Assembly: GCA_005502925.1 (NCBI GenBank)
Contig: SCPD01000025.1
Coordinates: forward strand, 1-64,000
Direction of reading: 5' to 3'
DNA: 64,000 nucleotides
Source: Rhizobiales bacterium Y(2018)
GTDB lineage: Bacteria > Pseudomonadota > Alphaproteobacteria > Rhizobiales > Aestuariivirgaceae
Shown one piece after another: positions 7,548-54,910 of this stretch (positions within the stretch are counted from its first letter, which is position 1; each line of letters starts with the position of its first letter). The notes beneath the pieces are model-generated. The model was not told the DNA's origin, did no database searches, and worked only from the letters and a program-made list of their open reading frames with translations. The position numbers and the translations under genes are program-made.

Positions 7548-7561
7548 TTGATCAGGATCAA
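7548..7561. promoter_or_regulatory. FNR/FixK box upstream of Spy-like gene
   Basis: TTGATCAGGATCAA, a perfect TTGAT-N4-ATCAA palindrome ending 66 nt before the start at 7628. Matches the known FNR/FixK consensus; activity is inferred. Confidence 0.85.
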
Positions 7562-7627
7562 GGCCCGCGGCCCAAATATGTTCACAGGTTTTGCTGTCCG
7601 CCATGTGCGTGCGGAAGGAGAACAAAC

Positions 7628-8131
7628 ATGAAGAAAATTCTACTGACGCCTGTTGCAATGCTTCTTTTCGGACTTGCATTCTCGGTGCCGTCGTATGCCC
7701 AGATACATAGCCACGGCGCGGGTATGATGGGCGGTGGATGCCCGATGATGGAGATGATGGGTGGCGGGATGATGGATCGGGGCATGATGGGCGACCGGCA
7801 GGCCCATATGGGAGCCATCGCCGAAGGCCGCCTCGCTTTTCTCAAGAGCGAGCTCGCAATCACCGACAAGCAGACCGAGGCCTGGAACGGATATGCCAAG
7901 GCAGTGAAGGCCGGGGCAGCTACCATGCAGGAGATGCACGCCGGCATGATGGGTGCCGTTGAGAAAGGCACTGCGATCGAGCGCATGGATGCGCGCATCA
8001 AGGGTATGCAGGGGATGGTCGAGGCGATAAGCGCACTCAAACCCGCGACTGTAATGCTCTATGACGCTCTCACGCCCGAACAGAAGAAGGTCGCCGACGA
8101 ATTGATCGGTGTGGGCTGCGGCGGCATGTAG
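7628..8131 (+). CDS. Spy/LTXXQ-family periplasmic protein, Met/His-rich
   Basis: 167 aa with a GGAG ribosome site before the ATG. Signal peptide at residues 1-24 (VPSYA-Q). A Met/Gly/His-rich stretch follows (residues 30-60, repeated MMGGG-type units), then a helical domain with two LTxxQ-like motifs (AITDKQTEAW and LTPEQKKVADEL). This is the Spy/CpxP fold class, periplasmic chaperone or metal-stress proteins. The Met-rich segment suggests copper or silver binding. It lies behind a perfect FNR-type box and starts a block of metal and redox genes (7628-12666). Confidence 0.8.
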   Translation: MKKILLTPVAMLLFGLAFSVPSYAQIHSHGAGMMGGGCPMMEMMGGGMMDRGMMGDRQAHMGAIAEGRLAFLKSELAITDKQTEAWNGYAKAVKAGAATMQEMHAGMMGAVEKGTAIERMDARIKGMQGMVEAISALKPATVMLYDALTPEQKKVADELIGVGCGGM

Positions 8132-8144
8132 GCTCTCGCCGGTC

Positions 8145-8487
8145 ATGGCGTATTATTTCGGTATAACCGTCGACATGCCTTGCGCGCGCTGTCGAGCGGG
8201 AATCTGAAACGCTAGGCAGGAATTCAAGGACCTTTGCGCCGATTGCCATAACGCAGAAGCTACAGGTGTAATGCCCTTTTGACGAAGTCGGGCACCTTTA
8301 TAACGAGACGTTCTCGCACCGCACTACGATCTGATCTCGATCTTTTACGCAGGCGAAGCGGACATCGTCGACAGATGCAAAGCCGGCTATCCGACTATCG
8401 TTCCTGGGATCCTCCTCCGAGAAGTGAACGTGGAGCACCTTCAGTCTCGTCAGTTCAATGAGGCGATGCTGGCCGACCGGCAATCAG
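8145..8487 (+). pseudogene. Decayed remnants (DUF302-like start, c-type cytochrome motif)
   Basis: Three pieces of coding-like sequence without an intact frame. At 8145 an ATG opens MAYYFGITVDMPCARC and stops after 20 codons; this resembles the start of DUF302 proteins. At 8223-8281 a frame reads FKDLCADCHNAEATG, a heme c motif (CxxCH) like those of the island's cytochromes, then stops. A further frame to about 8490 contains YAGEADIVDRCKAGYPTIVP. I read this as debris of two or three genes. The cytochrome motif is secure, the others tentative. Confidence 0.45.
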
Positions 8488-9186
8488 CTACACAGTCACG
8501 CCGAAGATCCTTCCGATCACTGCAGTTGCGATCATCGCGAGAGCACCCCAAAATGTGACCCGGGCGGCGCCTTTGAGCAAGCCTGCACCGCCTGCTGATG
8601 CCCCAAGCGCTCCAAGAGCCGCCAAGGCACCCAGTGTCGTCACCGCGACGCCAGACATGATCTGGGACTCCGGCACCAGCAATGTCACAATAAGAGGAAG
8701 GACGGCGCCGGCGGCGAAAGTCAAAGCGGAAACCAGCGCGGCTTGCAATGGATTGGTCGTTACCGTCTCCGAGATGCCCAACTCGTCACGCGCATGAGCA
8801 CCCAGCGCGTCCTGCGCCATAAGTTGCGTGGCGACCTGACGGGCAAGCTCGCTATCGAGGCCGCGCTCCATGTAGATGCGGGTGAGTTCATCAAGTTCCG
8901 CATCGGGCGCCTCGCGAAGCTCGCGGGTTTCGCGGGCGATGTCGGCCTTCTCGGCATCTGCCTGAGAGCTTACAGAGACATACTCTCCGGCCGCCATCGA
9001 CATCGCCCCGGCGACCAGCCCTGCGAGTCCGGCCACCAGAACCGCGCTGCGCGCCGACCCCGCAGCGGCGATGCCAACGACCAGACTCGCAGTCGAGACG
9101 ATCCCGTCATTCGCGCCGAGGACAGCGGCGCGCAGCCATCCGATACGATGGGCCATGTGGACTTCGGAATGGGAAAGCCTGCTCAT
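8488..9186 (-). CDS. VIT1/CCC1-family Fe2+/Mn2+ transporter
   Basis: 232 aa, normal family length. Typical VIT features: GANDGIVSTASLVVGIAAAG in the first membrane helix, MAAGEYVSVSSQADAEKAD leading into the charged cytosolic metal-binding region (residues 60-130), and three C-terminal membrane helices. Family members move Fe2+ or Mn2+ out of the cytosol, often against H+. A FixK-type box sits 36 nt upstream of the start, so it is probably induced at low oxygen, when ferrous iron rises. The start could be ATG 9186 or 9156. Confidence 0.9.
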   Translation of the reverse strand: MSRLSHSEVHMAHRIGWLRAAVLGANDGIVSTASLVVGIAAAGSARSAVLVAGLAGLVAGAMSMAAGEYVSVSSQADAEKADIARETRELREAPDAELDELTRIYMERGLDSELARQVATQLMAQDALGAHARDELGISETVTTNPLQAALVSALTFAAGAVLPLIVTLLVPESQIMSGVAVTTLGALAALGALGASAGGAGLLKGAARVTFWGALAMIATAVIGRIFGVTV

Positions 9187-9222
9187 TGACTATCTCATTG
9201 TCGATATTGAGGCATTGGCTCA

Positions 9223-9236
9223 TTGACCTGTGTCAA
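9223..9236. promoter_or_regulatory. FixK-type box upstream of VIT transporter
   Basis: TTGACCTGTGTCAA, ending 36 nt from the start at 9186 on the minus strand. It fits TTGA-N6-TCAA. Confidence 0.75.
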
Positions 9237-12982: not shown

Positions 12983-13131
12983 ATTGACCCTATTCAATCG
13001 ATCCGGTCGATTAGTCACCCGAATCACGAAGTGAGCATTGTCCGTTGCAAGTAAAATATCTCAACATTATTTAGGGCACTACTGCCTGGTGGGACGAGGA
13101 AGAGACTTAAGACAATGCGGCCACAACGGGG

Positions 13132-14655
13132 CTAGCATTCTATCCAGAACGGCTTCTGTTTGCGGAGCTGGGTTCGCTGGCTCTCGGCTTCAACCAGCAG
13201 GGCTTGTTCGATTTCCCTGTTTCTCGGCGCTGAGGCCGCGTGTCTATTTATCTTGTCATGCTGACGCCCCAGCAGCCTTTTCATAGACGCAATATCCGTC
13301 AGCTCCCCGAGTGTATCTTGCAAGCTTTCGGCTGCCTGTAGGCAGCCGTTGTAGCGGTCCCTTTGTTTGACGAAGAGGCTGCCGAAGAATTCGCAGGCAT
13401 ACCGGAATTTTTTACTCTGGATACGGAAGCGATGGCGTTGATCAGGTTCAAGACGTGAAATTTTGTCAAACTTGCGCAGCTTTCGCCATCGCCGCTCTAG
13501 TATCCGGATCGCGCCATCTTTGACCTTTTCTGCGCCAAGTGTGCTTCGCTCGCAATTCTTGGGCCTAGTCAATGGGCCGCACTCGATAAAGGCGACAAGA
13601 TCGATCAGACGCCGACAGAAACGTGTCGAACGCAACATCGCGACCACTTTCGCATAGGCTGCCTCGCGCTTTTCGCGAAGCGCAAGCAAGGTAACCGTGC
13701 TGGGCAAAGAATTGCCGGCATGCTCCAGGCTCGCGATCAGGATGTCGAGGTCCCGTATCTTGCCGAGTGTCCTAAAGACCCGTCTGGTTTCTAGGCGGAG
13801 CACCGATAGCTTCCGCTTCGGAAGGAGCGCCCCATGAAAAGAGAGAAGTGAGCGAAACCGCCGGATCGCGACTCTCATTTGATGCAGTGGTTCCGGTTCA
13901 GGGCTATTTAGCAGCAAAGTGGCATTGACCGCGAATTGGCGAATACACGCAGAGGCAATTACATGAAACGCCGCTGCCGCCGTCATGTTCTCGGCGAGTT
14001 GAACAGGGCTGGCCTTCACGGCATGCCCGGCTTCTCCCCCTAATAGCAGATACCCTCGATCAGCCTTACTCGCCATTTCGAGGCGCAATGGTATAGTCTG
14101 GACGACTTCCCGAGCGAGCTCGAATACGGCCTTAACCTTGCCTCTACGGAGTTCGACTTCAAGTTCACAGATGGGTTCGCTTCCGGATTCGATCCGAACC
14201 ATGCCTTCGTCCAAGGTTACACTAATATTGTTGTTCTTCCGCTGAAGAAGCCATTCCGTGCGCTGGACATCGATACGAAAAACGGGCCGCAATGATTGAC
14301 GCAATTTCTTGTATATTGCGGACGGGAAGTGCTTGCGGATCGCATCGATATCCGGCTTATCGCCGATGAGTTCGGTTTCATATTCCTCGCGAATGAACAA
14401 TCCATTTGATCGGGCAGCTTGTAGCTTCAAGGTTTGGATCGTCCGATCATTGGACGTGCGCAAGCGCAGCGACATGCCGGCTTCGTGAAGCACGTGGTCA
14501 GGGGTATCGAAATAGACCGATACAAGTGCCTTTATGGTCGGGCGAATGGAAACAAGCGATCGATGAGACACCAGTCGGCTTATATCGTGGGATTCTACCG
14601 CAAATTTCAGCTCGGTCTCGAGGATACTCGGTTTGCCGCGCGAGACAGGAGACAT
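13132..14655 (-). CDS. CYTH and CHAD domain protein
   Basis: 507 aa. N-terminal CYTH domain (residues about 10-205) with the signature ETELKFAV and later RLRTSNDRTIQTLKL, a triphosphate-binding tunnel fold; C-terminal CHAD helical domain (about 230-500) with LHQMRVAIRRFRSLLSFHG and KDLD-like RDLDILIASL. CHAD domains bind polyphosphate and CYTH proteins hydrolyse triphosphates, so a polyphosphate-linked role is likely. A perfect FNR-type box lies 73 nt upstream, which would tie it to low oxygen. Starts at the second of two in-frame codons (TTG ATG). Confidence 0.88.
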   Translation of the reverse strand: MSPVSRGKPSILETELKFAVESHDISRLVSHRSLVSIRPTIKALVSVYFDTPDHVLHEAGMSLRLRTSNDRTIQTLKLQAARSNGLFIREEYETELIGDKPDIDAIRKHFPSAIYKKLRQSLRPVFRIDVQRTEWLLQRKNNNISVTLDEGMVRIESGSEPICELEVELRRGKVKAVFELAREVVQTIPLRLEMASKADRGYLLLGGEAGHAVKASPVQLAENMTAAAAFHVIASACIRQFAVNATLLLNSPEPEPLHQMRVAIRRFRSLLSFHGALLPKRKLSVLRLETRRVFRTLGKIRDLDILIASLEHAGNSLPSTVTLLALREKREAAYAKVVAMLRSTRFCRRLIDLVAFIECGPLTRPKNCERSTLGAEKVKDGAIRILERRWRKLRKFDKISRLEPDQRHRFRIQSKKFRYACEFFGSLFVKQRDRYNGCLQAAESLQDTLGELTDIASMKRLLGRQHDKINRHAASAPRNREIEQALLVEAESQRTQLRKQKPFWIEC

Positions 14656-14728: not shown

Positions 14729-14742
14729 ATTGATTTGGATCA
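14729..14742. promoter_or_regulatory. FNR/FixK box upstream of CYTH/CHAD gene
   Basis: TTGATTTGGATCAA, perfect TTGAT-N4-ATCAA, ending 73 nt from the minus-strand start at 14655. Confidence 0.8.
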
Positions 14743-14841
14743 AGCTCCCGAGGATTTAGCCCCGGCTAGAGTGAGTTCCATTGGTTTACTATCGAGAGTT
14801 ACACAAAGCGCCGGCGGCGGGCTATGTGGGCAGGAAATCCT

Positions 14842-17313: not shown

Positions 17314-17931
17314 TCATATATTCTCCTTGGCATCAACAATTGCCGACTGCGCATAGCACGCAGATTACCGCTGCGATGTTGATTGCTATCTTCTGTCTCT
17401 GAGCTTCCGAGGGGAGACATCTCGGCGATGAGCCACGATGCGTACACTACTTTGGGCCTCGAGCATTTAGAGCCTAACCGCCGGGCGCTTTCCTTGATCG
17501 TGGTCAATCTAGATAGCAAAGTACTGCGGCAATGTTCCTAGAATATGATATCGGCGTTTTTTCTGATCGGGCGAAACTCAATGTCGCGTCAAGTGGTGCA
17601 TTGCATTAAGTGAGCATTAGCGAAATTCTTCCTCGTCGAATTGACTGACGTAAAAGCACCATGACCAAAAGGATGCACTTGGTGGAGGATTTGATTCCAA
17701 TATCCAAGCCACACTCCCGTTTGCAGAGGCAAGTAGGCCACCTGTCAAGGTATTTGACAATGGCATCTACGGCTCTTCTCCTCTCACCGCAGCAAATGCC
17801 GCCGCCATGAAAGCATTAGGGGTAGGTACTTCGGCGGAAACAGCAGCTGCTACCATTACTCACCTCCTTTTGATGCACTATTTCCCGACTAAGTGCAGAG
17901 TGCACTCCGTACGATAGGATGCGTATTTCCT
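17314..17931. other. Intergenic region with one FNR box and possible decayed coding
   Basis: Contains the FixK-type box at 17494. On the plus strand 17680-17918 an open stretch without a start codon reads like protein (for example VKVFDNGIYGSSPLTAANAA); I could not assign it and treat it as possible remnant coding sequence. Nothing else supported. Confidence 0.4.
17494..17507. promoter_or_regulatory. FixK-type box upstream of cytochrome c
   Basis: TTGATCGTGGTCAA, ending 180 nt from the minus-strand start at 17313, farther than most boxes in the island. Confidence 0.65.
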
Positions 17932-21126: not shown

Positions 21127-21140
21127 TTGACTTGCGTCAA
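21127..21140. promoter_or_regulatory. FixK-type box upstream of USP gene
   Basis: TTGACTTGCGTCAA, ending 56 nt from the minus-strand start at 21070. Confidence 0.8.
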
Positions 21141-21178: not shown

Positions 21179-21192
21179 TTGATCTGAATCAA
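21179..21192. promoter_or_regulatory. FNR box upstream of hemerythrin gene
   Basis: TTGATCTGAATCAA, perfect, 34 nt before the plus-strand start at 21227. With the box at 21127 it gives each of the two divergent genes its own site. Confidence 0.82.
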
Positions 21193-22708: not shown

Positions 22709-23437
22709 TCAGTCACCTGGCGATTGTCCGGCGGCATCGGCCAAGCGCGCCATAGAGAACAGCTTGATGCCTCGCGTGCCCTTTATCTCGATTATGCCCG
22801 TGGCTTTCAGCCTAGTCATCTGCCGGCTCACCGTTTCGACCGTGAGCCCCAGATAGTCAGCCATGTCCGCCCGCTTCAATGGCATGTCGAACTGGGCACC
22901 AGCCTGCTGCGGTGATCTGGCGAATCTGCACGCAAGAAGGAGGAGGAAGCTTGCTACCCTTTCAGCCGCGCTCTTGCGCCCGAGCAGCAGCATCCAATCC
23001 CGCGCAGCATCAAGATCATCGAGGGTACGCTCGAACAGACATTGCTTGAGATCGGGAAACGTGGCGATCAACCGTTCGAAGGCGTCACTGGGAAAGATAC
23101 AGAGCTCGACGTCGGTCGCGGCCATGGCGAAATAGCGATTGGTCCGGCCAAAGGTACGGCCGAGAAAATCCGATGCAAACAAAAGCCCAACGATCTGCTC
23201 ACGCCCGTCAACCGTGACCTTGGTCAGCTTTATGGTTCCGGAAACTATATTTGCAAAGAGAGTGACAGGCTGGTCGCTGGATATGATCGTCTGGCCCGCC
23301 GCATATTTCTTATAATGAGCTATCTCATTGAGGCGATTGAGCTGCTCATCGCTCATGGCCCCACAAACGGCCAGCTTTCGCACCGCGCAGAGCTGACAAC
23401 GGTGGAGATGGTCCATTTCCTGCGACTTCCTGTTCAT
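22709..23437 (-). CDS. FNR-type oxygen-sensing regulator
   Basis: 242 aa Crp/Fnr protein. N-terminal cluster HRCQLCAVRKLAVCGAM gives C-x2-C-x7-C and a fourth Cys lies in DVELCIFPSDAFERL, the pattern that holds an oxygen-labile [4Fe-4S] in FNR/FnrL. C-terminal HTH with LGLTVETVSRQMTRLK, whose E-x2-SR recognises TTGA half-sites. It can therefore read the TTGA-N6-TCAA boxes of the island directly. The divergent box at 23500 lies 62 nt from its start and may make it self-regulated. Best single candidate for the regulon's master activator. Confidence 0.9.
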   Translation of the reverse strand: MNRKSQEMDHLHRCQLCAVRKLAVCGAMSDEQLNRLNEIAHYKKYAAGQTIISSDQPVTLFANIVSGTIKLTKVTVDGREQIVGLLFASDFLGRTFGRTNRYFAMAATDVELCIFPSDAFERLIATFPDLKQCLFERTLDDLDAARDWMLLLGRKSAAERVASFLLLLACRFARSPQQAGAQFDMPLKRADMADYLGLTVETVSRQMTRLKATGIIEIKGTRGIKLFSMARLADAAGQSPGD

Positions 23438-37656: not shown

Positions 37657-37659
37657 TCC

Positions 37660-39836: not shown

Positions 39837-39847
39837 TGTCGCCTCTT

Positions 39848-41311
39848 TCAGAGCGGGCTGATGACGCCGGCCCACATTTCATAGGCCGCGAGCAAGGCGG
39901 CGAGCACCAAAGCGACAGCGAGACACGCCTCAGCCGCCGAGAAGACACGGCCACCGGCCTCGCGTCGCGCCCAGACATAAATGAGGATCCCAGGCGCATA
40001 GAGCGCGGCGCACATGAAGAGATATGTCGGCCCCGCGGCATAGACCAGCCAGAGGCCATAAGCGGTGGCGAGCAAGCCGGTGAGCAGAGGAAGCCAGCGC
40101 GACTCTTCCGGCCGGTATGCCTCACCAGTGACTGCCAGTTTCGCGGCATAAGCGCCCGAAAACACGTAAGGCACCAGGATTGCGGTCGAAGCGATGAAGA
40201 ACAATGCCTGGTAGGTGCTCTGCGCAAACAATGTGATGATGAGAAACAGCTGGACAAGCAGATTGGTGATGAGAAGCGAAAGCGACGGCACGCCCGCGTC
40301 GTTGTGCTCGGCGAAGAGTTTCGGCATCGTGCCGTCCTTGGCCGCGGCAAATGGGATTTCCGCTGCCAAGAGAGTCCAGCTCAGGAAGGCGCCCGCGACG
40401 GATACGACCAGAGCGATATTGATCATGACGGCCCCCCAGGGTCCCACAACTTTCTCCAGCACGCCGGCCATGGAGGGATTCTTGAGTGCCGCAAGCTCGG
40501 GCTGCGAGAGGACACCAAGCGACAGCAGCGAGACCAGAGCGTAGAGGGCGAGACAGGTGAAGAAGCCAGCGACAGTCGCAATCGCGATGTCACGGCGTCG
40601 TTCCGCCCGGGCGGAAAAGACGCTGGCCCCTTCTATTCCGATGAATACCCAGAGAGTCACCAGCATGGTGCTCTTCACCTGGGCGGTGATGGAGCCGAAA
40701 CTGGCATTGCCCAAGCCAGTAAAGTCCATGGAGAAGACATCAACCTTGAAGGCAACCGCCACGACGCCGATGAACAACACGATCGGCGCGATCTTGGCGA
40801 TGGTAACGATCAAATTGACGATCGTGGCTTCACGGATTCCCGTCAGAATGATGAAATGCACGATCCAGAGCAGTATCGATGCCGCCACGACGGCCTGCCA
40901 CGTATTTCCCTCTCCAAAAGAAGGAAAGAAATAGGAGAGGGCGCTGAACACCACGACGGCATAGGAGACATTCCCAAGCCAGGCGCTGAGCCAATATCCC
41001 CAGGCGCTGTTGAAACCGATGAACGAGCCGAATCCCGCCTTGGCATAGGCGTAAGGTCCGGCCTCGAGCTCGGGCTTGCGCGTCGCCAGCGACTGGTAGA
41101 CGAATACCAGGGCCAGCATCCCTACCGCCGTTATCGCCCAGCCGATGATGATGGCCAAGGGCCCGGCACCGGCCGCCATGTTCTGTGGCAGGCTGAATAC
41201 ACCGGACCCCACCATGGATCCAATGACCAGCGCCGTCAGGGCGCCCAGGCGCACCTTTTTCGCGGATTTTTTTGCCGCCGGCGCGGGGAATGCGGTATCG
41301 CTTACGGACAT
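39848..41311 (-). CDS. arcD: Basic amino acid antiporter (arginine/ornithine type)
   Basis: 487 aa, APC superfamily, about 12-13 membrane helices. The first helix region [20 protein letters not shown] holds the family's GSMVGSG substrate loop; later [17 protein letters not shown] is typical of the APA antiporters (ArcD/LysI-like). It heads the operon with arcA and likely swaps external arginine for internal ornithine, completing the energy-free cycle. FixK-type box 56 nt upstream of its start. Confidence 0.9.
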
Positions 41312-41367: not shown

Positions 41368-41381
41368 TTGACCAGGATCAA
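41368..41381. promoter_or_regulatory. FNR/FixK box between arcD and 41429 gene
   Basis: TTGACCAGGATCAA, 56 nt from the arcD start (minus) and 47 nt from the plus-strand start at 41429. Could drive both directions. Confidence 0.82.
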
Positions 41382-41428: not shown

Positions 41429-42004
41429 ATGGCTGTATCTGCAGAGAATGCAATCGAGCTGAGGGTCGACGATATTGCTCAATTATTCGACACCCTTGAC
41501 CCCTACCCTTTTCCCGAGCGGGACCTCAACCGGGATGCCGAGGAATATATCGTCGGTTGGGCGGGTGAGCTGTCGCCGAAGCAACCTCTCCGTATCATCG
41601 TTCACTATCCCGACACGGCGCAGCAACGAATTGCCTTTTCCGCACTCCGCAAAGCCATAGCAGGTTATTTCGACGCACGCTCACTCGCCACCCAGCGCGA
41701 GCTCAACGAGCTTTTTCGCATCGGACGACTATCGCTCCTCATCGGAGTGGCTACCCTGATTACATGCCTGTTCCTGGCGCAGCTGGCGGCGGAGCTCTTG
41801 CAGGAGGTGCCTTTCAGGAAGCTGATCGAGGAGAGCTTCCTGATCCTCGGCTGGGTCGCCAACTGGCGTCCGCTCGACATATTCCTCTATGATTGGTGGC
41901 CTCTGGTCCGCAGACGCCAGCTGTATCGGCGTATCGCCGTCGCGCGTATCGACGAAATGCCATACGAGATTCGAAATTTGTCTCCCCGGGTCGCTCAAGC
42001 TTGA
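41429..42004 (+). CDS. Hypothetical membrane-associated protein
   Basis: 191 aa, no family recognised. Soluble N-terminus with IELRVDDIAQLFDTLDPYPF and FPERDLNRDAEEYIVGWAGE, then a membrane helix (LSLLIGVATLITCLFLAQLA) and a second weak hydrophobic patch (FLILGWVANWRPLDIFLYDW), then a basic RRRQLYRRIAVARIDE tail. It shares a divergent promoter region with arcD and ends just before the hsp20 box, so it belongs to the regulon. A good target for new function. Confidence 0.78.
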   Translation: MAVSAENAIELRVDDIAQLFDTLDPYPFPERDLNRDAEEYIVGWAGELSPKQPLRIIVHYPDTAQQRIAFSALRKAIAGYFDARSLATQRELNELFRIGRLSLLIGVATLITCLFLAQLAAELLQEVPFRKLIEESFLILGWVANWRPLDIFLYDWWPLVRRRQLYRRIAVARIDEMPYEIRNLSPRVAQA

Positions 42005-42014
42005 CCGAGATCAA
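42001..42014. promoter_or_regulatory. FNR/FixK box upstream of hsp20
   Basis: TTGACCGAGATCAA, ending 56 nt before the start at 42071; overlaps the last bases of the preceding gene. Confidence 0.8.
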
Positions 42015-43687: not shown

Positions 43688-46072
43688 CTACGTGTTCCAG
43701 CGCCAATCGCGAATCTCCGGCATGTCCTGCCCATATCTGCGGATATAGTCGTGATGCTCCTTGAGCTTTGCGGTCATCAGCTGCGCCAACGCCGCTAGGC
43801 CGCTATCGGCACCTGGAATCCACCGCAAGACACTCAGGACGAGATGAAACCGATCCAGTCCGTTGAGTACGGTCATGTCAAAGGGTGTCGTGGTCGTCCC
43901 TTGCTCATTGTAGCCTCTTACATGGATATTGGAGTGATTGCGGCGCCGATAGGTCAATCTGTGGATTGTCGTCGGATAGCCGTGATAGGCGAATACGACG
44001 GGCTTGCCGGTGGTGAAGATGATGTCGAACTGTTCGTCGGACAATCCATGCGGATGGACGTCCTTCGGCAGCAAGGTCATCAGATCGATGACATTGACGA
44101 TGCGCACCCGCAAGTCCGGGGCAAATTCGCGAAGTATCTGGACGGCGGCGAGCGTTTCGAGTGTGGGAGCGTCACCCGCGCAGGCCATCACCACGTCGGG
44201 CTCATCGCCATGGTCGCTCGACGCCCAGTCCCATACGCCTATACCGGCGCGAAAATGGGCTATCGCCTCGTCGATCGACAGCCATTGCCACGCGGGAGGC
44301 TTGCCCGCCACGATGATGTTGATCCTGTTCCATGTGTGCAGGACATGTTCCGTGACGCAAAGTAACGTATTGGCATCCGGCGGCAGATAGACACGGACGA
44401 TATCCGGCTTCTTGTTCAAGGCGACGTCGATGAACCCGGGATCCTGGTGGCTGAAGCCGTTATGCTCCTGGTGCCAGACATGACTCGACAGCAAATAGTT
44501 AAGCGATGCGATCGGCTGCCGCCAGCCGATCGAACGGCAGGCATCAAGCCATTTTGCGTGCTGGTTGAACATCGAGTCGACGATGTGAATGAAGGCCTCG
44601 TAGCACGAAAACAGGCCATGGCGTCCAGTCAGTATGTAGCCTTCGAGCCACCCCTGGCAGGTGTGTTCAGAGAGAATTTCGAGGACCCTGCCCTCATGCC
44701 CGAGGCTTACATCCTCAGGGAGAATCCGCTCCATCCAGGCGCGGTCGGTTACCTCGAAGACGTCTTGAAGTCGGTTCGACGCTGTCTCGTCAGGCCCAAC
44801 GATACGAAAATTCTTCTCGGCCGAGTTTGCTTCCAGCACGTCGCGCAGGAAACGGCCCATCACTCGTGTCGATTCAGCCTTTACCGAGCCGGGCCGCCCG
44901 GTCATCACGGCATGATCACGAAGAGCGGGGAGGATCAGCGGCTTGCGGAGTCCGCCATTGGCATGCGGGTTGGCGCTCATACGCCGGCGGCCGCGCGGGG
45001 CTGCGGCGGTAACCGCCTCCAAAGGCGCACCTCTCGCGTCGAAGAGCTCCTCCGGCCGGTAACTTTGCAGCCATGCTTCGAGCTGCCGCACATGCTCGGG
45101 ATTCTCCGCCAGGCCCGACAATGGCACCTGATGCGAGCGCCAGAAGCCCTCGGTCACGAGCCCGTCCACTTGCTTGGGGCCAGTCCAGCCCTTCGGACTT
45201 CTCAGAACTATCATCGGCCATTTCGGACGCGACCGGAATTCGCTTTCTGGCTGGCGGGCCCGCACCTGTATAGTCCGGATGCGATCAAATGCCTGATCGA
45301 GAACAAATGCCATCCGCCTGTGCATCAGGTGCGGATCTCTGCCTTCGACAAACAACGGCTCGTAGCCATAGCCTGAAAGGAGCGAATGCAGCTCGTCAGG
45401 CGGAATGCGCGCGAGTATGGTCGGATTGGCGATCTTGTAGCCGTTGAGATGAAGAATGGGCAGCACCGCTCCATCCCGCTTTGGGTTCAGGAATTTGTTG
45501 GAATGCCATGCTGCCGCCAGAGGGCCTGTTTCCGCTTCACCGTCGCCAATGACACATGCGACAACAAGCTCGGGATTATCGAAAGCGGCACCGAACGCAT
45601 GCGATAGTGCGTAGCCGAGTTCGCCGCCTTCGTGAATCGAGCCTGGAACGTCAGGCGCCGCATGGCTCGGTATGCCACCGGGAAAGGAGAACTGGCGGAA
45701 TAGCCGTCGCATTCCCTTCTCGTCACGCGGGACTTCGAGATTGAGTTCGCTGTAAGTTCCTTCGAGATAACTATTGGCGACCATGGCCGGGCCGCCATGC
45801 CCAGGTCCGCACACATAGATCATATCGACGTCCCTGTGCCGGATGATCCGATTGAGATGCGCATAGATGAAATTGAGGCCGGGAGAGGTGCCCCAGTGTC
45901 CCAGCAGCCTCGGTTTGATATGCTCGAGGCCGAGCGGCTCGCGCAGCAGCGGATTGTCGAGCAGATAGATCTGACCTACCGTGAGATAATTGGCGGCGCG
46001 CCAGTATGCGTCGATGGCGCGCGCCTCATCTTCGGGCAAGTAGTCCTGCGACGTCGAGATCGCTGTTTCCAT
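43688..46072 (-). CDS. xfp: Phosphoketolase
   Basis: 794 aa, full length. N-terminal [17 protein letters not shown] and [20 protein letters not shown] site [20 protein letters not shown], and C-terminal [18 protein letters not shown]. Splits xylulose 5-phosphate or fructose 6-phosphate into acetyl phosphate plus glyceraldehyde 3-phosphate or erythrose 4-phosphate. No acetate kinase gene lies in the window, so acetyl phosphate must be used by a host enzyme. No box right before it; it may be read from the trxC-remnant promoter at 46613. Confidence 0.95.
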
Positions 46073-46612: not shown

Positions 46613-46626
46613 TTGACTTCGATCAA
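46613..46626. promoter_or_regulatory. FixK-type box upstream of trxC remnant
   Basis: TTGACTTCGATCAA, ending 77 nt from the remnant's start at 46535. May now serve xfp further downstream. Confidence 0.72.
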
Positions 46627-46722: not shown

Positions 46723-47838
46723 TTACTTCAAGAACCGCCGGAAGCGCCACAGGGAGATGGAGAAGAACGCAGCACCGATCGCTAATAGAGCAAGGAATTG
46801 TGGCCATACGACATCGAGACCAGCACCGCGGAACAGGATCGACTGCGCCAGAGCCACGAAATGCGTATTGGGCGCGACCAACATAATGTCCTGCACGATC
46901 TCCGGCATGCTTTCGCGAGGCGTGACCGCTCCCGACAGGAGCTGCAGCGGAAGCAAAACCAGCATCAACAGCAGCCCGAACTGGGGCATCGATCCGGCAA
47001 TCGTCGCAAGGACCAAGCCTAAGCAAGTCGTGGCAAAGATGTGGAGCGTGGCACCGAGCATGAAAAGCGCCAAAGAGCCTTGAATCGGAACAGCCAGCAC
47101 GCCCTTCACGATGAACACCAGAGAAATGCTCGAAGCAACAAGAACGACAAGGCCCATCGACCAGATCTTGCTGATCATGATCTGGGCCGGCGTGACAGGC
47201 ATGACGAGAAGATGCTCGGTCGTACCATGCTCGCGCTCGCGGATGAGGGCTGCTCCGGTGAGGACGAGCGCCAGCATGGTGATGGAGGTGATAATCTCCG
47301 TAATGCTGCCGAACCAGCCTCTGTTGAGCTCCTGGTTGAATCTTGTTCGCAGGACGAGGTCGACCGGGAGAGGGGCACTTCCCCGATAGCGGCTCAGAAA
47401 CTCGCCGACCTCGCTCCCTACAATGCTGCGGACATAGCCGCCGCCGGTGAAGGCCTGGGTCATGCGGGTGGCATCGATATTGAGCTGGAGGGTCGGGGAG
47501 CGCCCGGCCAGAAGATCGCGCTGGAAATTCGGCGGGATATCCAGGGCAAAAGTGTCGAGGCCGGCATCCATTCTCACATCCATGTCACGCTGGGAAATGA
47601 GCTTCGGCGTCGCGAAGTATGGCGGATAGAAGGCCAGAATGATCCGGGAAGACAGCGGCGACTGATCCTCGTCGACAATGGCGATCGCCGCGCGATTGAG
47701 CGTTTCCGGCATGGCACGCGAAGCGGTATAGATCGAGAGCGTGAAAGCATAGACAATGAGAACAACGAGTATCGGGTCCCGAGCCAGGCCACGCAGCTCT
47801 TTGACTCCCAGGTGAAGGATGTTCCTGCCGATCGCCAT
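46723..47838 (-). CDS. ABC-2 type transporter permease (YhhJ-like)
   Basis: 371 aa. One N-terminal helix (DPILVVLIVYAFTLSIYTAS), a large periplasmic loop, then five C-terminal helices with TEIITSITMLALVLTGAALI and IREREHGTTEHLLVMPV, the ABC-2 permease signature. Third gene of a HlyD / double-ATPase-permease / permease operon, the order of yhiI-rbbA-yhhJ. Starts 2 bp after the upstream gene. Exports an unknown substrate. Confidence 0.9.
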   Translation of the reverse strand: MAIGRNILHLGVKELRGLARDPILVVLIVYAFTLSIYTASRAMPETLNRAAIAIVDEDQSPLSSRIILAFYPPYFATPKLISQRDMDVRMDAGLDTFALDIPPNFQRDLLAGRSPTLQLNIDATRMTQAFTGGGYVRSIVGSEVGEFLSRYRGSAPLPVDLVLRTRFNQELNRGWFGSITEIITSITMLALVLTGAALIREREHGTTEHLLVMPVTPAQIMISKIWSMGLVVLVASSISLVFIVKGVLAVPIQGSLALFMLGATLHIFATTCLGLVLATIAGSMPQFGLLLMLVLLPLQLLSGAVTPRESMPEIVQDIMLVAPNTHFVALAQSILFRGAGLDVVWPQFLALLAIGAAFFSISLWRFRRFLK

Positions 47839-47840
47839 GT

Positions 47841-50621
47841 CTAGCCAGCCTGCTTCTTGAGTAGCGCCGCACTCAGGCCGAGCAAAATTGGAATGGCGAT
47901 CAGGAGAGGCATGAACGCCCCGGCCAAGTCGGTGAAATCGAGGGCCTTGGAAAAAGCACCACGCGATATAGTCATGAAATAGGTGGTCGGATAGAGGCGT
48001 CCGATGATCGCTCCCGCTCCTTGCAGTGATGAGACCGGATCGATCATTCCCGAATATTGCACGGCCGGTATCAGGGTGATGAGAACGGTGGCGAAAATGG
48101 CAGCGATCTGACTCCTCATGAAGCTCGATATGAGAAGGCCCAAGCCTGTCGCCACAATGACATAGAGGAGTGCTGCGACGCTGAGCATAGGAAAGCTGCC
48201 AGTCAGTGGCACGCGGAAGAAGAAGATTGCAAAGGCCGCAAGGGTGACGAAGTTCATCAGCGCCAGGCCAATATAAGGCAGTTGTTTTCCGATCAGGAAT
48301 TCGAGACGGGTAACCGGCGTCACATAGAAATTTATGATCGATCCGAGCTCCTTCTCCCGCACCACGCTGAGCGCCGCAAGCATGGCCGGGATCATCAGCA
48401 GAAGGAGTGGGATGACGGCCGGCACAATGGCCACGAGGCTCTTTATGTCAGGATTGTACCGATAGCGCAGTTCCACCTGGAAGGCGTCGGCCGCCGCGGT
48501 GTCGCCGCGAAGCTCGCGCGCCTTCTGCCTGAGCCAACCTTCATGCATCCCTCGCACATAGCCAAGAACCCTCTCGGCCCGCATCGGCATGGCACCGTCG
48601 ATCCACCCGCCGAGCTCCACCTGCCGGCCGCGCGCCACGTCCCGCCCAAAACCCGGTGGAATTTCGAGGGCAAGGCTGATTTCCCCCCGGCGCATCCGCC
48701 GGTCCAGATCGATATAGTCGATGAGTGGCGCCTTCTCCGTGAAGTAACGCGAACCGGCAATCTGCAGCCGATAGTCACGGCTGATCGTTGTGTCATCGTG
48801 ATCGAGCACCGCGAAGGACAAATTCTCCACATCCATGTTGATGCCATAGCCGATCACGAACATCAGGATGACGCTTCCAAGGATCGCGAGCGTAGCCCGG
48901 ATGGGGTCGCGACGGAGTTCGAGCGCCTCGCGCCGCGAATAGGCGAACATACGGGAGAAATCGAACGGCGGTCTGTCCCCTTCCCGCGAGGCGCGGCCCG
49001 CCGGCGGCGCAGCTTGGACGGCGGGCGCCCGATCCGGCGGCGCCGCATCCGGTTCCACCTCTCCAATCGCCTCTTCAAGATAGCTGATAAAGGCTTCCTC
49101 CAGCGTGCCGGCGGAGCGCGCCGCGATGATGGCCGCGGGCGAATCGCTGACCAGCACTCTCCCGGCATGCATCAGAGACACGCGGTCGCAAAGCTCCGCC
49201 TCGGACATGAAATGTGTCGAGACGAATATCGTCACGCCATCCTTTCGCGAGAGGTCGGACAGGATCTCCCAGAACGCATCGCGCGCAACGGGATCAACCC
49301 CGGAGGTCGGCTCGTCGAGGATCAGGATTTCGGGCGCATGGATCATCGCGACGGCGAGCGAAAGACGCTGACGAACGCCAAGTGGCAGGACCTCGGGCAG
49401 AGCGTCCATTACGCCTTCCAATCCGAAGCGTCTGGCCATATCCGTGATCCGGCGAGGGATGACGTCAGACGGCAGGGCATAAAGGCGCGCATGCAGCTCG
49501 AGATTCTGGCGTACCGTCAGTTCAGTGTAGAGCGAGAAAGCCTGTGACATATAACCGACCCGGCGCCGCAGCTCGATATCCCGGGGATCGACGGGCCGCC
49601 CGAAAAGCTCCGCCTTGCCTGTGCTTGCCGGCAGAAGGCCGGTCAGCATCTTCATCGTCGTCGTCTTGCCGCAGCCGTTCGATCCAAGAAAGCCGAAAAT
49701 CTCACCACTGCGGATGCGAAAACTGACATTGTCGACGGCGGTGAATTCTCCAAAGCGCATGGTCAGATTCTTGGCCTCGATGGCAATCTCGCCCTCTTGT
49801 ACCCGTGGCGGAATGACCACGTTCCGGTGCCCTCGCCGTTTTTCCTCCGGAAGCAGAGCGATGAAAGCCTCATCGAGCCCCCGGGCGCCTACGCGCTTCT
49901 TCAGGGCCTCCGGCGTGCCCACGGTGAGGATGCGACCGGCATCAAGGGCGACAATCAGATCGAAATGCTCCGCTTCCGCCATGTAGGCCGTCGAGACGAT
50001 GATACTCAGATCTGGACGGTCGCGCCGTATGTCTTCAATCAAGTGCCAGAATTGCCGTCGGGACAAAGGATCCACGCCTGTCGTCGGCTCGTCCAGGATC
50101 AGGAGATCCGGATCATGGATAAGGGCGCAGCAGAGCCCGGTTTTCTGTTTCATGCCGCCGGAAAGCTTGCCGACGGGACGATTTGCGAAGGCGCTCATGC
50201 CGGTACGCTCCAGCAGGCTCGCTATGCGCCTGTGGCGCTCACCCTGTGCATGGCCGAAAAGGCGGCCGAAGAAATCTATGTTCTCGACGACCGAGAGGGT
50301 CGGATAAAGATTTTTTCCCAGCCCCTGCGGCATGAAGGCGATGCGCGGGCAGATTGACCTGCGATGACGAACATCGGCGATATTTCCGCCGAGAACATCG
50401 ATGTACCCCTCCTGCACGGCGCGCGCACCGGCGATCATCGAAAGAAGACTGGACTTGCCGACGCCATCCGGGCCGATCAGCCCGACCAACCGACCGGCAG
50501 GCAGCTCCAAATCGATGTCCGCGAGAGCCCGTGTCTTTCCGTAGGAGAGCCCTACCCCCGCCAGCCGCGCAACACTTGTGGCAGGCCAGGACGAGACGAC
50601 AGGGTTGTTCATCCCGCTCAT
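47841..50621 (-). CDS. RbbA-type fused ABC ATPase/permease
   Basis: 926 aa from the ATG at 50621, whose ATGA overlaps the stop of the HlyD gene; a longer frame to 50654 is less likely. Two ATP-binding domains: Walker [10 protein letters not shown] (first, about residue 45) and GSNGCGKTT (second, about 310), signatures [12 protein letters not shown] and [13 protein letters not shown], Walker [14 protein letters not shown] and [13 protein letters not shown]. The C-terminal third is an ABC-2 permease ([20 protein letters not shown] and five helices). The second signature lacks the usual LSGG, a point worth checking. Confidence 0.92.
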
Positions 50622-51685
50622 TGCAGAAGATTTTCTCTCAGCTTCGCCGGCCATTCGACCTGTGAATCGAGGCGCACATAGGCCATTCCAGGCAGGCCCG
50701 TCTTCACCTGCTTGATGTATTTCCGCAGGAGAGTTTGTGGAATTCCCGCCTTCACGCGGAACATCAGCTTCTGCCGTTCCTCTTCGGTTTCGACCGTCTT
50801 GGGCGTGAACTGAGCCACATCCGCCACGAAGGTCACCTCGGCAGGGATCACATATTGGGGCGCAGCATCGAGCACCAGGCGGACATCGGCACCGATCGCG
50901 ATGCGGCCCGCCTGAGCGGTCGGCAGGAAGAACGTCATATAGACGTCGCCCAGATCGACGAGATTGAGCACGCGGCCTCCGGCGGAAAGCACCTCCCCGG
51001 GCTGGGCGACACGATACTGAATTCTTCCGTCACGGGGCGACTTGAGCGTGCTGTCATTGATATCCGCGGTAATGCTCTGAATTGCGGCATGGGCCGCTTC
51101 GACGGCCGCCTCGGCATCCACCAGTTGTGCCTTGGCGGCGCCGATCGCGGCATCGGCGGCGGCAAGCTGCGCCCGCGCTGCCGCGACTGCGGAGCGGGTG
51201 CCTTCCGCACTCGCGCGATCATCGTCGAGGACCTGCTGCGACACGGTGTTGGTCCTGATGAGCTGCTGGGAACGGGCCAGTTTCCTAGCGGCGACATCGA
51301 GCTGGGCCTGCCGCTGCGCGACCACGGCTTCCGAAGCTGCCTTTTCCGCCTGCCGCTGGACGATCACACTCCGGGCCGTGTCCACCCCAATGATCGTACG
51401 CCGCCACTGCGCCAGCGCTTGCCGCCGCTGAGCCTCGAGCTGCTCTGTGTCCATGAGCGCGAGAACCTGGCCTGCCTGGACGAAATCTCCTTCGGCGACG
51501 AATATCTGCTTGATGCGACCTGGAGACTTGGTCGAGATGTCGATCTCCACCGCTTCGATACGGCCGTTACCGCTGGCTATGCCCGCCGGCAGCTCATTGC
51601 CGACCAGATGCTGCCAATAGAGATAGCCCGCCCCGGCCAGGGCGATAAGCAGGACGGCAGCGAGCCAGTGGCGTCGACTGATCAT
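50618..51685 (-). CDS. HlyD-family membrane fusion protein (YhiI-like)
   Basis: 355 aa from the ATG at 51685. One N-terminal membrane anchor ([19 protein letters not shown]), lipoyl half-motif [20 protein letters not shown], a long helical hairpin (about 95-215), second half [20 protein letters not shown] and beta-barrel end. Links the inner-membrane ABC exporter to the periplasm or an outer-membrane channel. No outer-membrane protein is encoded nearby. FixK-type box 140 nt upstream. Confidence 0.9.
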
Positions 51686-51825
51686 TTCATCGCACCCGCG
51701 CGAATCTGGCGGCGACCCCACGGATATCCTCGGTTGTCGACCAAGTTGCTGCGACAGGCCACGGGTTCAATCTCCATAAAAACATTGTTCTGCAATGTGG
51801 CTAGACCATTCCGGCACAAGCGGTC

Positions 51826-51839
51826 TTGACCTGAATCAA
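51826..51839. promoter_or_regulatory. FixK-type box upstream of ABC exporter operon
   Basis: TTGACCTGAATCAA, 140 nt from the minus-strand start at 51685. With the box at 51884 it gives two sites between divergent units. Confidence 0.75.
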
Positions 51840-51883: not shown

Positions 51884-51897
51884 TTGATCGGGATCAA
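51884..51897. promoter_or_regulatory. FNR box upstream of cytochrome c
   Basis: TTGATCGGGATCAA, perfect, ending 62 nt before the TTG start at 51960. Confidence 0.82.
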
Positions 51898-52977: not shown

Positions 52978-52991
52978 TTGATCGACGTCAA
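52978..52991. promoter_or_regulatory. FixK-type box upstream of secreted hypothetical
   Basis: TTGATCGACGTCAA, 33 nt from the minus-strand start at 52944. Confidence 0.75.
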
Positions 52992-53029: not shown

Positions 53030-53043
53030 TTGACCTCGGTCAA
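53030..53043. promoter_or_regulatory. FixK-type box upstream of USP gene
   Basis: TTGACCTCGGTCAA, ending 56 nt before the plus-strand start at 53100. Confidence 0.8.
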
Positions 53044-53939: not shown

Positions 53940-53962
53940 GGATTGGTTGCGCGGCAGGCTGC

Positions 53963-54337
53963 TTACCGGTCGAGACTATCGATGAAGGTCGACAGCGCGG
54001 CCGCCTGGGTGGCTGTCATCGTGAATTCCGGCATCGCCGGATGGCCGACGACGATCCCCTCCACGAACGCTTCCTCAAGATCGGAGGCTCTATACATGCG
54101 GGCAATGACGCGGAAGGGTGGCGCCGGCGGAAATGGACTGTCACCGGCAGCGGCGATATTGTGGCATCTCGCACAATTGGCCTGGGCTATGACACGGCCG
54201 CGCTCCTCGGTTTCTCCGGCCGATACCGCCCCCGCCAAAGACACAGCCAGCGGCGTCAGCAAAACCGTCAGCCTCAAGATCGAACGGGATATGGAACAGC
54301 TCACCGTGTGGCTCAGCGCGCTATCGTCACGGTGCAA
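53963..54337 (-). CDS. Class I c-type cytochrome
   Basis: 124 aa. Signal peptide (about 1-40, ending VSAGE), heme site ANCARCHNIAAAGDS (CxxCH near residue 56) and Met ligand in GHPAMPEFTMTATQ near the C-terminus. A short mono-heme cytochrome of a type different from the REMPVWGD family. Its start overlaps the end of the USP gene by 25 bp, so both are likely read from the box at 54782. Confidence 0.9.
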   Translation of the reverse strand: MHRDDSALSHTVSCSISRSILRLTVLLTPLAVSLAGAVSAGETEERGRVIAQANCARCHNIAAAGDSPFPPAPPFRVIARMYRASDLEEAFVEGIVVGHPAMPEFTMTATQAAALSTFIDSLDR

Positions 54338-54726
54338 TCCGCGCGCCGTGCAATGTCGGCAGCCACCGATCCGAGCATGAGGCGCGATACCCCGCCCTTG
54401 TCGCCGGTACCGACGACGATATGGTCGACCTTTTTCTCGTCTGCGTATTGAACAATACCTGAATCCGCCTCGCGGCTGGCGATGACAACCTCCTTGACGA
54501 CGGCGACGCCGGCACGGCGAGCCTCTTCAGCCCCCAAATGTACGATGCTCTGGGCTTCCGCATCTTCATGAGAATAAAGGAGTGGCCCGCGAATGCCGCC
54601 AAGTGCGACGTTCACGAGAGCGACAATCAATTCGGCTCCGGCGCGCTTTGCCAGATCGGTCGCGTAAGATACCGCTATCCTGGAATGTTCGGCGCCGTCA
54701 GTGGCCACCAGTATCCGCTTGTCCAT
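54313..54726 (-). CDS. Universal stress protein, single domain
   Basis: 137 aa, one UspA domain. Starts MDKRILVATDGAEHSRIAVS and keeps the ATP-binding signature GTGDKGGVSRLMLGS (G-2x-G-9x-GS), so it should bind ATP, unlike some tandem forms. The only single-domain USP of the island. FixK-type box 55 nt upstream. Confidence 0.93.
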   Translation of the reverse strand: MDKRILVATDGAEHSRIAVSYATDLAKRAGAELIVALVNVALGGIRGPLLYSHEDAEAQSIVHLGAEEARRAGVAVVKEVVIASREADSGIVQYADEKKVDHIVVGTGDKGGVSRLMLGSVAADIARRADCTVTIAR

Positions 54727-54781
54727 GATTATCTCCTCCTCGGGATAACGATGAATCCTATCTGCTGAATCGATCAGGACT

Positions 54782-54795
54782 TTGATTTAGGTCAA
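54782..54795. promoter_or_regulatory. FixK-type box upstream of USP-cytochrome pair
   Basis: TTGATTTAGGTCAA, 55 nt from the minus-strand start at 54726. Confidence 0.8.
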
Positions 54796-54896
54796 TAGAT
54801 GATCAGGCTTCCGGGCCAATTTTGATTGGTCATCTGATCGCCAGCAAAGCCACCGTCGCTCGGAAAATGCTGCGATTTCCTCCACTTCGATCCGAT

Positions 54897-54910
54897 TTGA
54901 CCAGCATCAA
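54897..54910. promoter_or_regulatory. FixK-type box upstream of P-type ATPase
   Basis: TTGACCAGCATCAA, ending 130 nt before the start at 55041. This and the previous box are the only content seen in the 54727-55040 gap. Confidence 0.72.

What the first reader, a model, noticed from the sequence alone, without database searches (positions are those of the whole stretch)
7548..54910. Dense island-wide FNR/FixK regulon: 24 boxes, none seen outside
I find 24 sites of the form TTGA-N6-TCAA (two with one end mismatch) within 47 kb, most ending 33-85 nt before a start codon, often about 55 nt. Eight fixed bases predict roughly one per 65 kb by chance. None was noticed in 1-7046 or 58299-64000. So this is not a random set of genes but a transferable low-oxygen regulon with its own promoters.
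Basis: partly seen in the sequence, partly recalled or inferred. Interest (0 to 1): 0.9.

Follow-up and report, generated by a model that had tools for sequence, protein, structure and literature searches.

The report
Low-oxygen gene island with own switches
A 51,000-base block of survival genes in a bacterium is wired almost throughout with the same predicted low-oxygen switch, carries its own predicted oxygen sensors, and is bracketed by transfer-RNA scars that suggest it arrived as one piece.

Summary
In detail: 24 exact TTGA-N6-TCAA sites at 7548-54910, against 0.76 in shuffles, none elsewhere on the contig. The strict form occurs 21 times in the island and 12 times in the other 7.05 Mb, about 240-fold denser. 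They look like promoters: 13 of 24 end 30-90 nt before a start codon with unadjusted starts (19 of 24 adjusted; random mean 1.3), and a -10-like element is phased 21 nt behind the box, here and in distant alphaproteobacteria but not at the 12 outside loci.

Predicted control: haem-PAS hybrid FixL, FxkR-like regulator, a diverged K-box before all five fixK copies in held loci of the genus, FixK, and iron-sulfur FnrN. The block lies between 46-nt tRNA-Phe 3' ends; its marker genes are missing from a sister genome. No integrase was found.

Against a closed regulon: one-mismatch sites near cbb3 oxidase genes outside, a second FnrL, boxes kept in only 29 of 43 relatives of boxed genes, and no link of box number with the marker in the family. 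Closest known: pRL9 hFixL-FxkR-FixK; by content, the Burkholderia lxa locus. Oxygen response is untested.

The parts
7047..7092 (+). left flanking repeat: last 46 nt of a tRNA-Phe(GAA) gene, 5' part missing (att-like)
   Evidence: 46-nt direct repeat with 58253-58298, one mismatch; identical to positions 31-76 of tRNA-Phe genes in two viral contigs
58253..58298 (+). right flanking repeat: same tRNA-Phe 3' part, one mismatch
7548..7561 (.). anaerobox, 66 nt before LTXXQ-family gene 7628+
9223..9236 (.). anaerobox, 36 nt before VIT1 gene (8488-9186 -)
12984..12997 (.). loose box between converging genes; probably not a promoter
13438..13451 (.). loose box inside CYTH-CHAD gene; probably chance
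14730..14743 (.). anaerobox, 74 nt before CYTH-CHAD gene (13132-14655 -)
17494..17507 (.). anaerobox, 180 nt before cytochrome c gene (16843-17313 -); assignment doubtful
21127..21140 (.). anaerobox, 56 nt before Usp gene (20228-21070 -); kept in 2 of 2 relatives
21179..21192 (.). anaerobox, 34 nt before hemerythrin gene (21227 +, adjusted start)
23500..23513 (.). anaerobox, 62 nt before fnrN-like gene (predicted autoregulation)
23557..23570 (.). anaerobox, 49 nt before host-attachment-family gene (23620 +); kept at 46-52 nt in 6 of 6 relatives
26258..26271 (.). anaerobox, 51 nt before Usp gene (26323 +), possible operon with hybrid fixL; exact box in 1 of 4 relatives
28804..28817 (.). anaerobox, 54 nt before Usp gene (28872 +); 56, 55 and 55 nt in three relatives
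31936..31949 (.). anaerobox, 84 nt before DUF2333 gene (30832-31851 -), 127 nt before fixK
33963..33976 (.). anaerobox, 63 nt before ornithine carbamoyltransferase (34040 +)
36014..36027 (.). one-mismatch anaerobox, 60 nt before APH-AAA gene (36088 +)
37660..37673 (.). anaerobox, 60 nt before Usp gene (37734 +); 60-61 nt in 4 of 4 relatives
41368..41381 (.). anaerobox shared by amino acid permease (39848-41311 -, 56 nt) and 41429 + (47 nt)
42001..42014 (.). anaerobox, 56 nt before Hsp20 gene (42071 +); kept in 4 of 4 relatives
46613..46626 (.). anaerobox, 77 nt before weak thioredoxin-like ORF (46272-46535 -)
51826..51839 (.). anaerobox, 104 nt before HlyD-RbbA-permease genes (-)
51884..51897 (.). 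anaerobox, 62 nt before cytochrome c gene (51960 +); kept in 0 of 3 relatives
52978..52991 (.). anaerobox, 33 nt before 52429-52944 -; kept in 2 of 2 relatives
53030..53043 (.). anaerobox, 56 nt before Usp gene (53100 +)
54782..54795 (.). anaerobox, 55 nt before Usp gene (54313-54726 -)
54897..54910 (.). anaerobox, 130 nt before metal P-type ATPase (55041 +); not kept in the one relative
22709..23437 (-). FnrN/FnrL-type regulator: Cys14, 17, 25 and 113, ETVSR recognition helix
27244..28797 (+). hybrid FixL: haem-PAS, histidine kinase, receiver
   Evidence: full-length matches only in G000, G002 and G004 of five genomes
29793..30530 (-). OmpR-type response regulator, FxkR-like (46% to the response regulator at the published fxkR9 place)
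31989..32004 (+). K-box-like direct repeat GCCACA-N4-GGCACA, 72 nt before fixK
   Evidence: present before all five fixK copies in the held loci of the genus
32077..32787 (+). FixK-type regulator, best solved relative FixK2
34040..41311 (.). arginine deiminase pathway: OTC (+), carbamate kinase (+), deiminase (-), permease (-), with APH-AAA and Usp genes between
43688..46072 (-). phosphoketolase
46723..51721 (-). HlyD - RbbA - ABC permease genes

Best explanation
A 51.2-kb block (about 7093-58252), probably acquired through recombination at a tRNA-Phe 3' end, carries a low-oxygen survival regulon together with its controls. As oxygen falls, the haem-PAS hybrid kinase FixL should signal to the OmpR-type regulator, which should bind the diverged K-box at 31989-32004 and switch on fixK. 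FixK, and at still lower oxygen the iron-sulfur protein FnrN, should bind the TTGA-N6-TCAA boxes. Most boxes are placed so that the regulator dimer would sit near -41 (class II) and activate transcription starting about 33 nt beyond the box. Seven universal stress proteins, Hsp20, arginine deiminase fermentation, hemerythrin, small cytochromes and pumps would be switched on together. The 23500 box suggests FnrN autoregulation; the 26258 box, if Usp and hybrid fixL form one operon, would add positive feedback here, though the exact box is kept in only 1 of 4 relatives. Shown by sequence: box enrichment, promoter geometry, partial conservation, protein types, half-tRNA repeats, absence of marker genes from a sister genome. 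Inferred: phosphotransfer, DNA binding, oxygen response, mobility.
For: Enrichment. Position: 13 of 24 at 30-90 nt with unadjusted starts, random mean 1.3, maximum 8. -10-like TAnnnT at exactly 21 nt: 9 of 48 unassigned box sides in the window (other offsets mean 0.39), 6 of 42 in G002, 6 of 76 in G004, 22 of 194 in 78 other named loci (mean 1.07), 0 of 24 sides at the 12 outside loci. Footprinting: exact box within 250 nt in 29 of 43 relatives of genes boxed here, against 3 of 32 relatives of genes not boxed here. Protein types. K-box-like element before five of five fixK copies held. Half-tRNA repeats. G001 lacks the marker gene and full-length hybrid FixL and has 12 strict sites.
Against: No expression or binding data. 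The canonical K-box is not in the window: best match 2 of 12 fixed bases off, and the total not above chance. No integrase found in the ORFs tried. Another FnrL (C11:932957) could drive the boxes. One-mismatch boxes about 300 nt or more upstream of ccoN outside suggest core targets too. Boxes are not kept at fixK (0 of 4), cytochrome c 51960 (0 of 3), cytochrome c 16843 (0 of 1) or the P-type ATPase (0 of 1), and only in 1 of 4 at Usp 26323. Phosphoketolase has no exact box within 250 nt of its start, and neither has its one relative held. Strict box number does not track the APH-AAA marker in genus g2 of the family (p 0.60). 39 of 80 named marker loci have no box, including 11 of 11 Azospirillum ones.
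Confidence: 0.8

Rival explanations
1. The boxes are real, but the island is simply part of the genome-wide core FnrL regulon: the chromosomal FnrL senses oxygen, and the island's own regulators add little.
For: A second FnrL is conserved in G000, G001 and G004. A one-mismatch box lies about 300 nt upstream of ccoN in G000, with the same sequence in G001 and G004. Crp/Fnr proteins of this type share the site (PMC7888657, passages seen).
Against: Hybrid FixL, the OmpR-type regulator and fixK stay together with island genes in G000, G002 and one G004 block; full-length hybrid FixL is missing from G001; the K-box-like element is kept before every fixK copy held; the outside strict sites lack the phased -10.
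Confidence: 0.13
2. A vertically inherited stress locus that was lost in G001, not acquired; the tRNA-Phe half-repeats come from an unrelated older event.
For: Four of five genomes in the genus hold the marker gene, and relatives of island proteins are 43-85% identical between species. No integrase found in the ORFs tried. GC is only slightly lower than the flanks (0.584 against 0.61). The left flank 1-7046 is not shared with the tRNA-Gly region of G001 either.
Against: Different chromosomal places in G000, G002 and G004, with several paralogous blocks in G004; the repeats bracket all 24 boxes; comparable gene sets occur on plasmids.
Confidence: 0.25
3. The boxes are a chance or compositional cluster without function.
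For: Two or three of the 24 are not at promoters.
Against: Shuffles, permuted half-site controls, positional test, -10 phasing and footprinting reject it.
Confidence: 0.01

Closest known systems
hFixL-FxkR-FixK and FnrN system of Rhizobium leguminosarum/johnstonii 3841, plasmid pRL9 (PMC7888657, passages seen)
   Same: Same sensor architecture (hybrid FixL 47%, response regulator 46%, FixK 38% identity over the aligned parts); activating anaeroboxes at -32 to -34 in its Table 1; dual boxes before fnrN. The pRL9 stretch also holds alcohol dehydrogenase, two Usp, APH-AAA and HlyD-RbbA-permease genes, with 11 loose boxes in 41 kb.
   Different: Here hybrid fixL follows a boxed Usp gene instead of fixK, fnrN is inside the block, the K-box has diverged, seven Usp genes are present, and no cbb3 oxidase gene was found in the block (the genome's one ccoN match is on C16).
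Burkholderia cenocepacia lxa (low-oxygen-activated) locus (PMC9733578, PMC6127331, PMC3759415, passages seen; Sass 2013 not held, nothing seen)
   Same: 50 clustered genes induced by low oxygen, six Usp genes, a small heat-shock protein, a cytochrome c, a BON-domain protein; missing from strain H111.
   Different: The candidate FNR-type regulator named in PMC6127331 (BCAM0049) lies outside the lxa range BCAM0275-0323; homology to the window was not tested.
Alphaproteobacterial FnrN/FixK regulons (PMC4999443, passages seen)
   Same: Same regulator types and the FxkR site GTTACA-N4-GTTACA.
   Different: [quoted passage not shown] 'universal stress', 'usp' and 'Hsp20' have no occurrence in its main text.
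Mycobacterium tuberculosis DosR dormancy regulon (mentioned in PMC6127331, passage seen)
   Same: Low-oxygen regulon of 48 genes with 10 Usp and an alpha-crystallin.
   Different: Unrelated regulator and site (recalled).

Membership tests
FnrN/FixK (anaerobox) regulon | TTGA-N6-TCAA palindromes enriched at promoters | tested here: met
FnrN/FixK (anaerobox) regulon | activating box near -33 edge with a -10 element in register | tested here: met
   TAnnnT peak at 21 nt in the window, G002 and 78 named loci, weakly in G004; compare -32 to -34 in PMC7888657 Table 1. Transcription starts themselves not mapped
FnrN/FixK (anaerobox) regulon | cognate Crp/Fnr regulators, one with iron-sulfur cysteines | tested here: met
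   cysteine spacing and recognition-helix reading partly recalled
FnrN/FixK (anaerobox) regulon | oxygen-dependent expression | not testable with these tools
   needs RNA-seq
hFixL-FxkR-FixK cascade | hybrid FixL with haem-PAS, kinase and receiver | tested here: met
   His aligned with the FixL haem domain (its role recalled)
hFixL-FxkR-FixK cascade | OmpR-type FxkR | tested here: met
   46% over 243 columns to the pRL9 response regulator at the published fxkR9 place
hFixL-FxkR-FixK cascade | canonical K-box GTTACA-N4-GTTACA before fixK | tested here: not met
   no match with fewer than 2 mismatches, and total not above chance; a diverged direct repeat of the same spacing is conserved. Hence: works like this cascade, not filed as a canonical member
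B. cenocepacia lxa locus | contiguous block rich in Usp genes with a small heat-shock protein | tested here: met
   seven Usp, one Hsp20
B. cenocepacia lxa locus | homology and shared gene order with BCAM0275-0323 | not tested
   that record was not fetched
tRNA-integrated mobile island | direct repeats of a tRNA 3' end at both borders | tested here: met
tRNA-integrated mobile island | integrase | tested here: not met
   none by Pfam or PHROGs in the ORFs tried; not every ORF was tried, 64001-70463 was not scanned, and the contig begins at window base 1. Not filed as an active integrative element

The most novel reading that the evidence does not exclude
A transferable oxygen-response module: sensor kinase, response regulator with a rewired K-box, FixK and FnrN travel with, and act almost only on, some 20 class II promoters of the same island, so that a recipient gains a complete and insulated low-oxygen dormancy programme in one step.
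Probability: 0.35. Interest if true: 0.75.

Novelty: new variant of a known kind. Interest (0 to 1): 0.57.

Why it matters
Regulons are usually thought of as scattered targets gathered under a regulator over time. Here 21 of the 33 strict sites of a 7.1-Mb genome sit in 0.7% of it, beside their own predicted sensors. That makes it testable whether a whole stress programme can be inherited as one block and stay separate from the host's own FNR network. It also links the sensors known from rhizobial symbiosis to a stress-survival gene set in another family of the order, and predicts a new FxkR site.

Tried and rejected
Canonical K-box search in the window: 15 matches at up to 3 mismatches against 11 expected, rejected; the diverged element appeared only from aligning upstream regions of fixK copies. 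tRNA-Gly (59882-59956) as the insertion site: no repeat of its 3' end, rejected in favour of tRNA-Phe. Idea that APH-AAA marks boxed islands throughout the family: rejected. Idea that the outside strict sites are promoters of a core regulon: 11 of 12 lie inside an ORF on some strand (mechanical ORFs) and none shows the phased -10, but one-mismatch sites before ccoN keep the question open. My first gene caller picked antisense frames in places; gene choices were then made from the ORF list with Pfam. The first positional test used starts adjusted with the boxes in view, so it is partly circular; one search repeats it with unadjusted starts. The first footprint table used over-extended starts; one search repeats it with adjusted starts and counts every gene with a relative, including two unboxed genes whose relatives do have boxes (Usp 21809: 2 of 2; cytochrome b561 42657: 1 of 1). 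Rfam on the two repeats gave no tRNA match, as the copies are half genes. L019 and the G002 loci are the same DNA; the 78-locus test leaves out L018 and L019, the genus members.
Full report
Observation. The exact pattern TTGAN6TCAA occurs 24 times in the window, all between 7548 and 54910; shuffles give 0.76 on average and 3 at most. The window is bases 1-64000 of a 70,463-base contig of a 7.10-Mb genome in 37 contigs; the remaining 6.5 kb has no site. Genome-wide there are 90 loose sites (66 outside; reversed control 14) and 33 strict TTGAYN4RTCAA sites (12 outside; control 1). From the outside density the island should hold 0.48 loose or 0.09 strict sites; it holds 24 and 21.

Promoter geometry. 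With longest-ORF starts, 13 of 24 boxes end 30-90 nt before a start, and 18 of 24 end 30-135 nt before one; random placement gives means 1.3 and 2.3 and maxima 8 and 10 in 20,000 trials. With starts adjusted knowing the boxes the numbers are 19 and 21. A test that needs no gene starts: taking both sides of every box, the form TAnnnT appears at exactly 21 nt behind the box in 9 of 48 sides, while the other 41 offsets average 0.39. The same offset is the peak in G002 (6 of 42), in 78 other named loci (22 of 194, other offsets mean 1.07, the neighbouring offset 22 holding 10) and, weakly, in G004 (6 of 76, next best offset 5); the 12 outside loci of this genome give 0 of 24. A -10 element there puts the box edge near -33 and its centre near -41, matching the activating anaeroboxes of R. 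leguminosarum 3841 at -32 to -34 (PMC7888657 Table 1, passage seen). The name class II for this arrangement is recalled.

Conservation. In the held loci of G002 and G004, relatives of island proteins are 43-85% identical (75 comparisons). Some boxes keep their distance closely: 49 nt here and 48, 46, 50, 52, 49, 50 nt for 23620; 54, 56, 55, 55 for Usp 28872; 60, 60, 60, 60, 61 for Usp 37734; 56, 49, 62, 61, 54 for Hsp20. In all, an exact box lies within 250 nt in 29 of 43 relatives of genes boxed here and in 3 of 32 relatives of genes not boxed here. Misses include fixK (0 of 4), cytochrome c 51960 (0 of 3), Usp 26323 (1 of 4), 41429 (1 of 2), the fnrN relative in G004 (its match is partial) and the P-type ATPase (0 of 1). 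The three hits among unboxed genes are Usp 21809 (2 of 2) and cytochrome b561 42657 (1 of 1). In 80 named loci around relatives of the APH-AAA gene (1.41 Mb), TTGAN6TCAA occurs 104 times against 0-16 for each of the eleven other arrangements of the half-site; 39 of the 80 have none, among them 11 of 11 Azospirillum loci. 52 of these 104 boxes, against 5 of 48 control sites, lie near the start of a relative of a window gene.

Gene content. Pfam and NCBIfam give seven Usp proteins, Hsp20, hemerythrin, ornithine carbamoyltransferase, carbamate kinase, arginine deiminase, amino acid permease, phosphoketolase, alcohol dehydrogenase, a metal P-type ATPase, HlyD-RbbA-permease, small cytochromes c and b561, VIT1, CYTH-CHAD, rhodanese, CBS-BON, a HipA-like protein, and a fused APH-AAA protein. 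Together they suggest survival and energy saving under low oxygen rather than a new respiration (inference). Phosphoketolase has no exact box of its own within 250 nt.

Regulators. 22709-23437 is FnrN/FnrL-like (NCBIfam FnrL 254 bits, below its cut-off of 300), with Cys14, 17, 25 and a central Cys113; its Cys14, 17 and 113 align with cysteines of FNR, the third is two residues off. 32077-32787 is FixK-like (best solved relative FixK2) and lacks the N-terminal cysteine cluster. 27244-28797 is a hybrid FixL: its PAS aligns with the haem domain of FixL including a histidine, followed by kinase and receiver, 47% identical to the PAS kinase at the published hfixL9 place on pRL9 and 58.9% to one of R. 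etli 8C-3. 29793-30530 is OmpR-type and 46% identical to the response regulator at the published fxkR9 place.

K-box. The canonical FxkR site GTTACA-N4-GTTACA (PMC7888657, PMC4999443) is not in the window. Aligning upstream regions of the five fixK copies in the held loci (one each in G000 and G002, three in G004) shows one near-invariant block in otherwise diverged DNA, TTGCCACAAACCGGCACAATCG with one change in one copy. It contains GCCACA-N4-GGCACA, a direct repeat with the same spacing as the K-box. In 2.29 Mb of held DNA the class G-N-Y-ACA-N4-G-N-Y-ACA occurs 14 times; 11 of the 14 lie before fixK genes (two of them in L019, the same DNA as L131), among them canonical copies before pRL9 fixK9a (85 nt) and before a fixK-like gene in L044. 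Two other fixK-like genes tried (L160, L035) and pRL9 fixK9b showed no such site within the 300 nt examined (the L035 start is approximate), although a K-box is published between fixK9b and fxkR9, so this pattern misses some. The element is therefore a likely diverged K-box; binding is untested.

Borders and transfer. A 46-nt direct repeat, one mismatch, lies at 7047-7092 and 58253-58298. It equals positions 31-76 of tRNA-Phe(GAA) genes found by ARAGORN in two viral contigs; with three mismatches it matches the tRNA-Phe of Azospirillum sp. B510, which is followed by a site-specific integrase. Both copies lack the 5' half, as one would expect between stacked insertions (inference). All 24 boxes lie between them. 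G001 lacks the marker gene and full-length hybrid FixL, shows no island gene in the 40 kb held around its tRNA-Gly, and has 12 strict sites in its whole genome; a search of G001 for every island gene was not made. G002 carries the island elsewhere, with a cbb3 oxidase gene among its genes. G004 has island genes in at least five places, with hybrid fixL twice and fixK three times. No integrase was recognised in the ORFs tried, so present mobility is open.

Limits. The marker gene does not predict box number in the wider family: 39 genomes with and 30 without, mean 32 against 24, p 0.07; within genus g2 p 0.60 (counts). Another FnrL and one-mismatch boxes about 300 nt upstream of ccoN in this genome, G001 and G004 mean that the core network may share the regulators. 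In the listings I saw no paper on such an island; the library lacks most subscription journals. In Bradyrhizobium diazoefficiens several Usp genes and an Hsp20 gene are in a table of low-oxygen-induced genes (PMC6515984, passages seen), so low-oxygen induction of such genes is not new in itself.

Changes after checking. The positional and footprint numbers were replaced by the stricter ones, the no-box count was corrected to 39 of 80, and confidence was lowered from 0.82 to 0.80 and interest from 0.58 to 0.57, because conservation of the boxes is less complete than my first tally; the core-FnrL rival was raised from 0.12 to 0.13 for the same reason.

Verdict. A real and unusually concentrated FNR/FixK-type regulon with class II-like promoters and its own predicted sensors on a probably acquired island: a new variant of a known kind.

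Noticed in passing
window 7047-7092 and 58253-58298: 46-nt direct repeats equal to the 3' part of tRNA-Phe(GAA), both without the 5' half, bracket the whole boxed block.
   Followed up: yes
window 31987-32014: Near-invariant block before the five fixK copies held of the genus; contains a K-box-like direct repeat, with a further repeat 10 bp upstream in G002 and in one G004 copy (L131:10681, L152:3716).
   Followed up: partly
L150:9725 and L152:11605: GACACA-N4-GACACA repeats followed by a GCACA near two G004 island blocks, not tied to a gene.
   Followed up: no
window 21127/21179, 23500/23557, 51826/51884, 52978/53030: Four box pairs 52-58 bp apart in divergent promoters, about five helical turns, perhaps giving a second upstream contact for each direction.
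   Followed up: no
L163 (Leisingera aquaemixtae 59.8-kb plasmid): RepABC plasmid loaded with Usp, HipA, APH-AAA, HlyD-RbbA-permease, P-type ATPase and chaperone genes, but only one loose box in the 31 kb scanned (L162): a similar cargo perhaps under another regulator.
   Followed up: partly
L045, L047, L048, L053, L054, L065, L069, L071, L073, L080, L097 (Azospirillum): The APH-AAA gene is present but without any TTGA-N6-TCAA box in the stretches held (11 of 11), so perhaps other control there.
   Followed up: no
L157:1186, L156:3173, L158:3180: One-mismatch box about 300 nt upstream of ccoN, same sequence in G000, G001 and G004.
   Followed up: partly
window 18027-19868: 613-residue protein with a HipA-like C-terminal domain inside the island; function unknown.
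   Followed up: no
window 21809-22651 and 42657-43169: A Usp and a cytochrome b561 gene without their own box here, whose relatives in G002 and G004 do have one: regulon membership shifts between species.
   Followed up: partly
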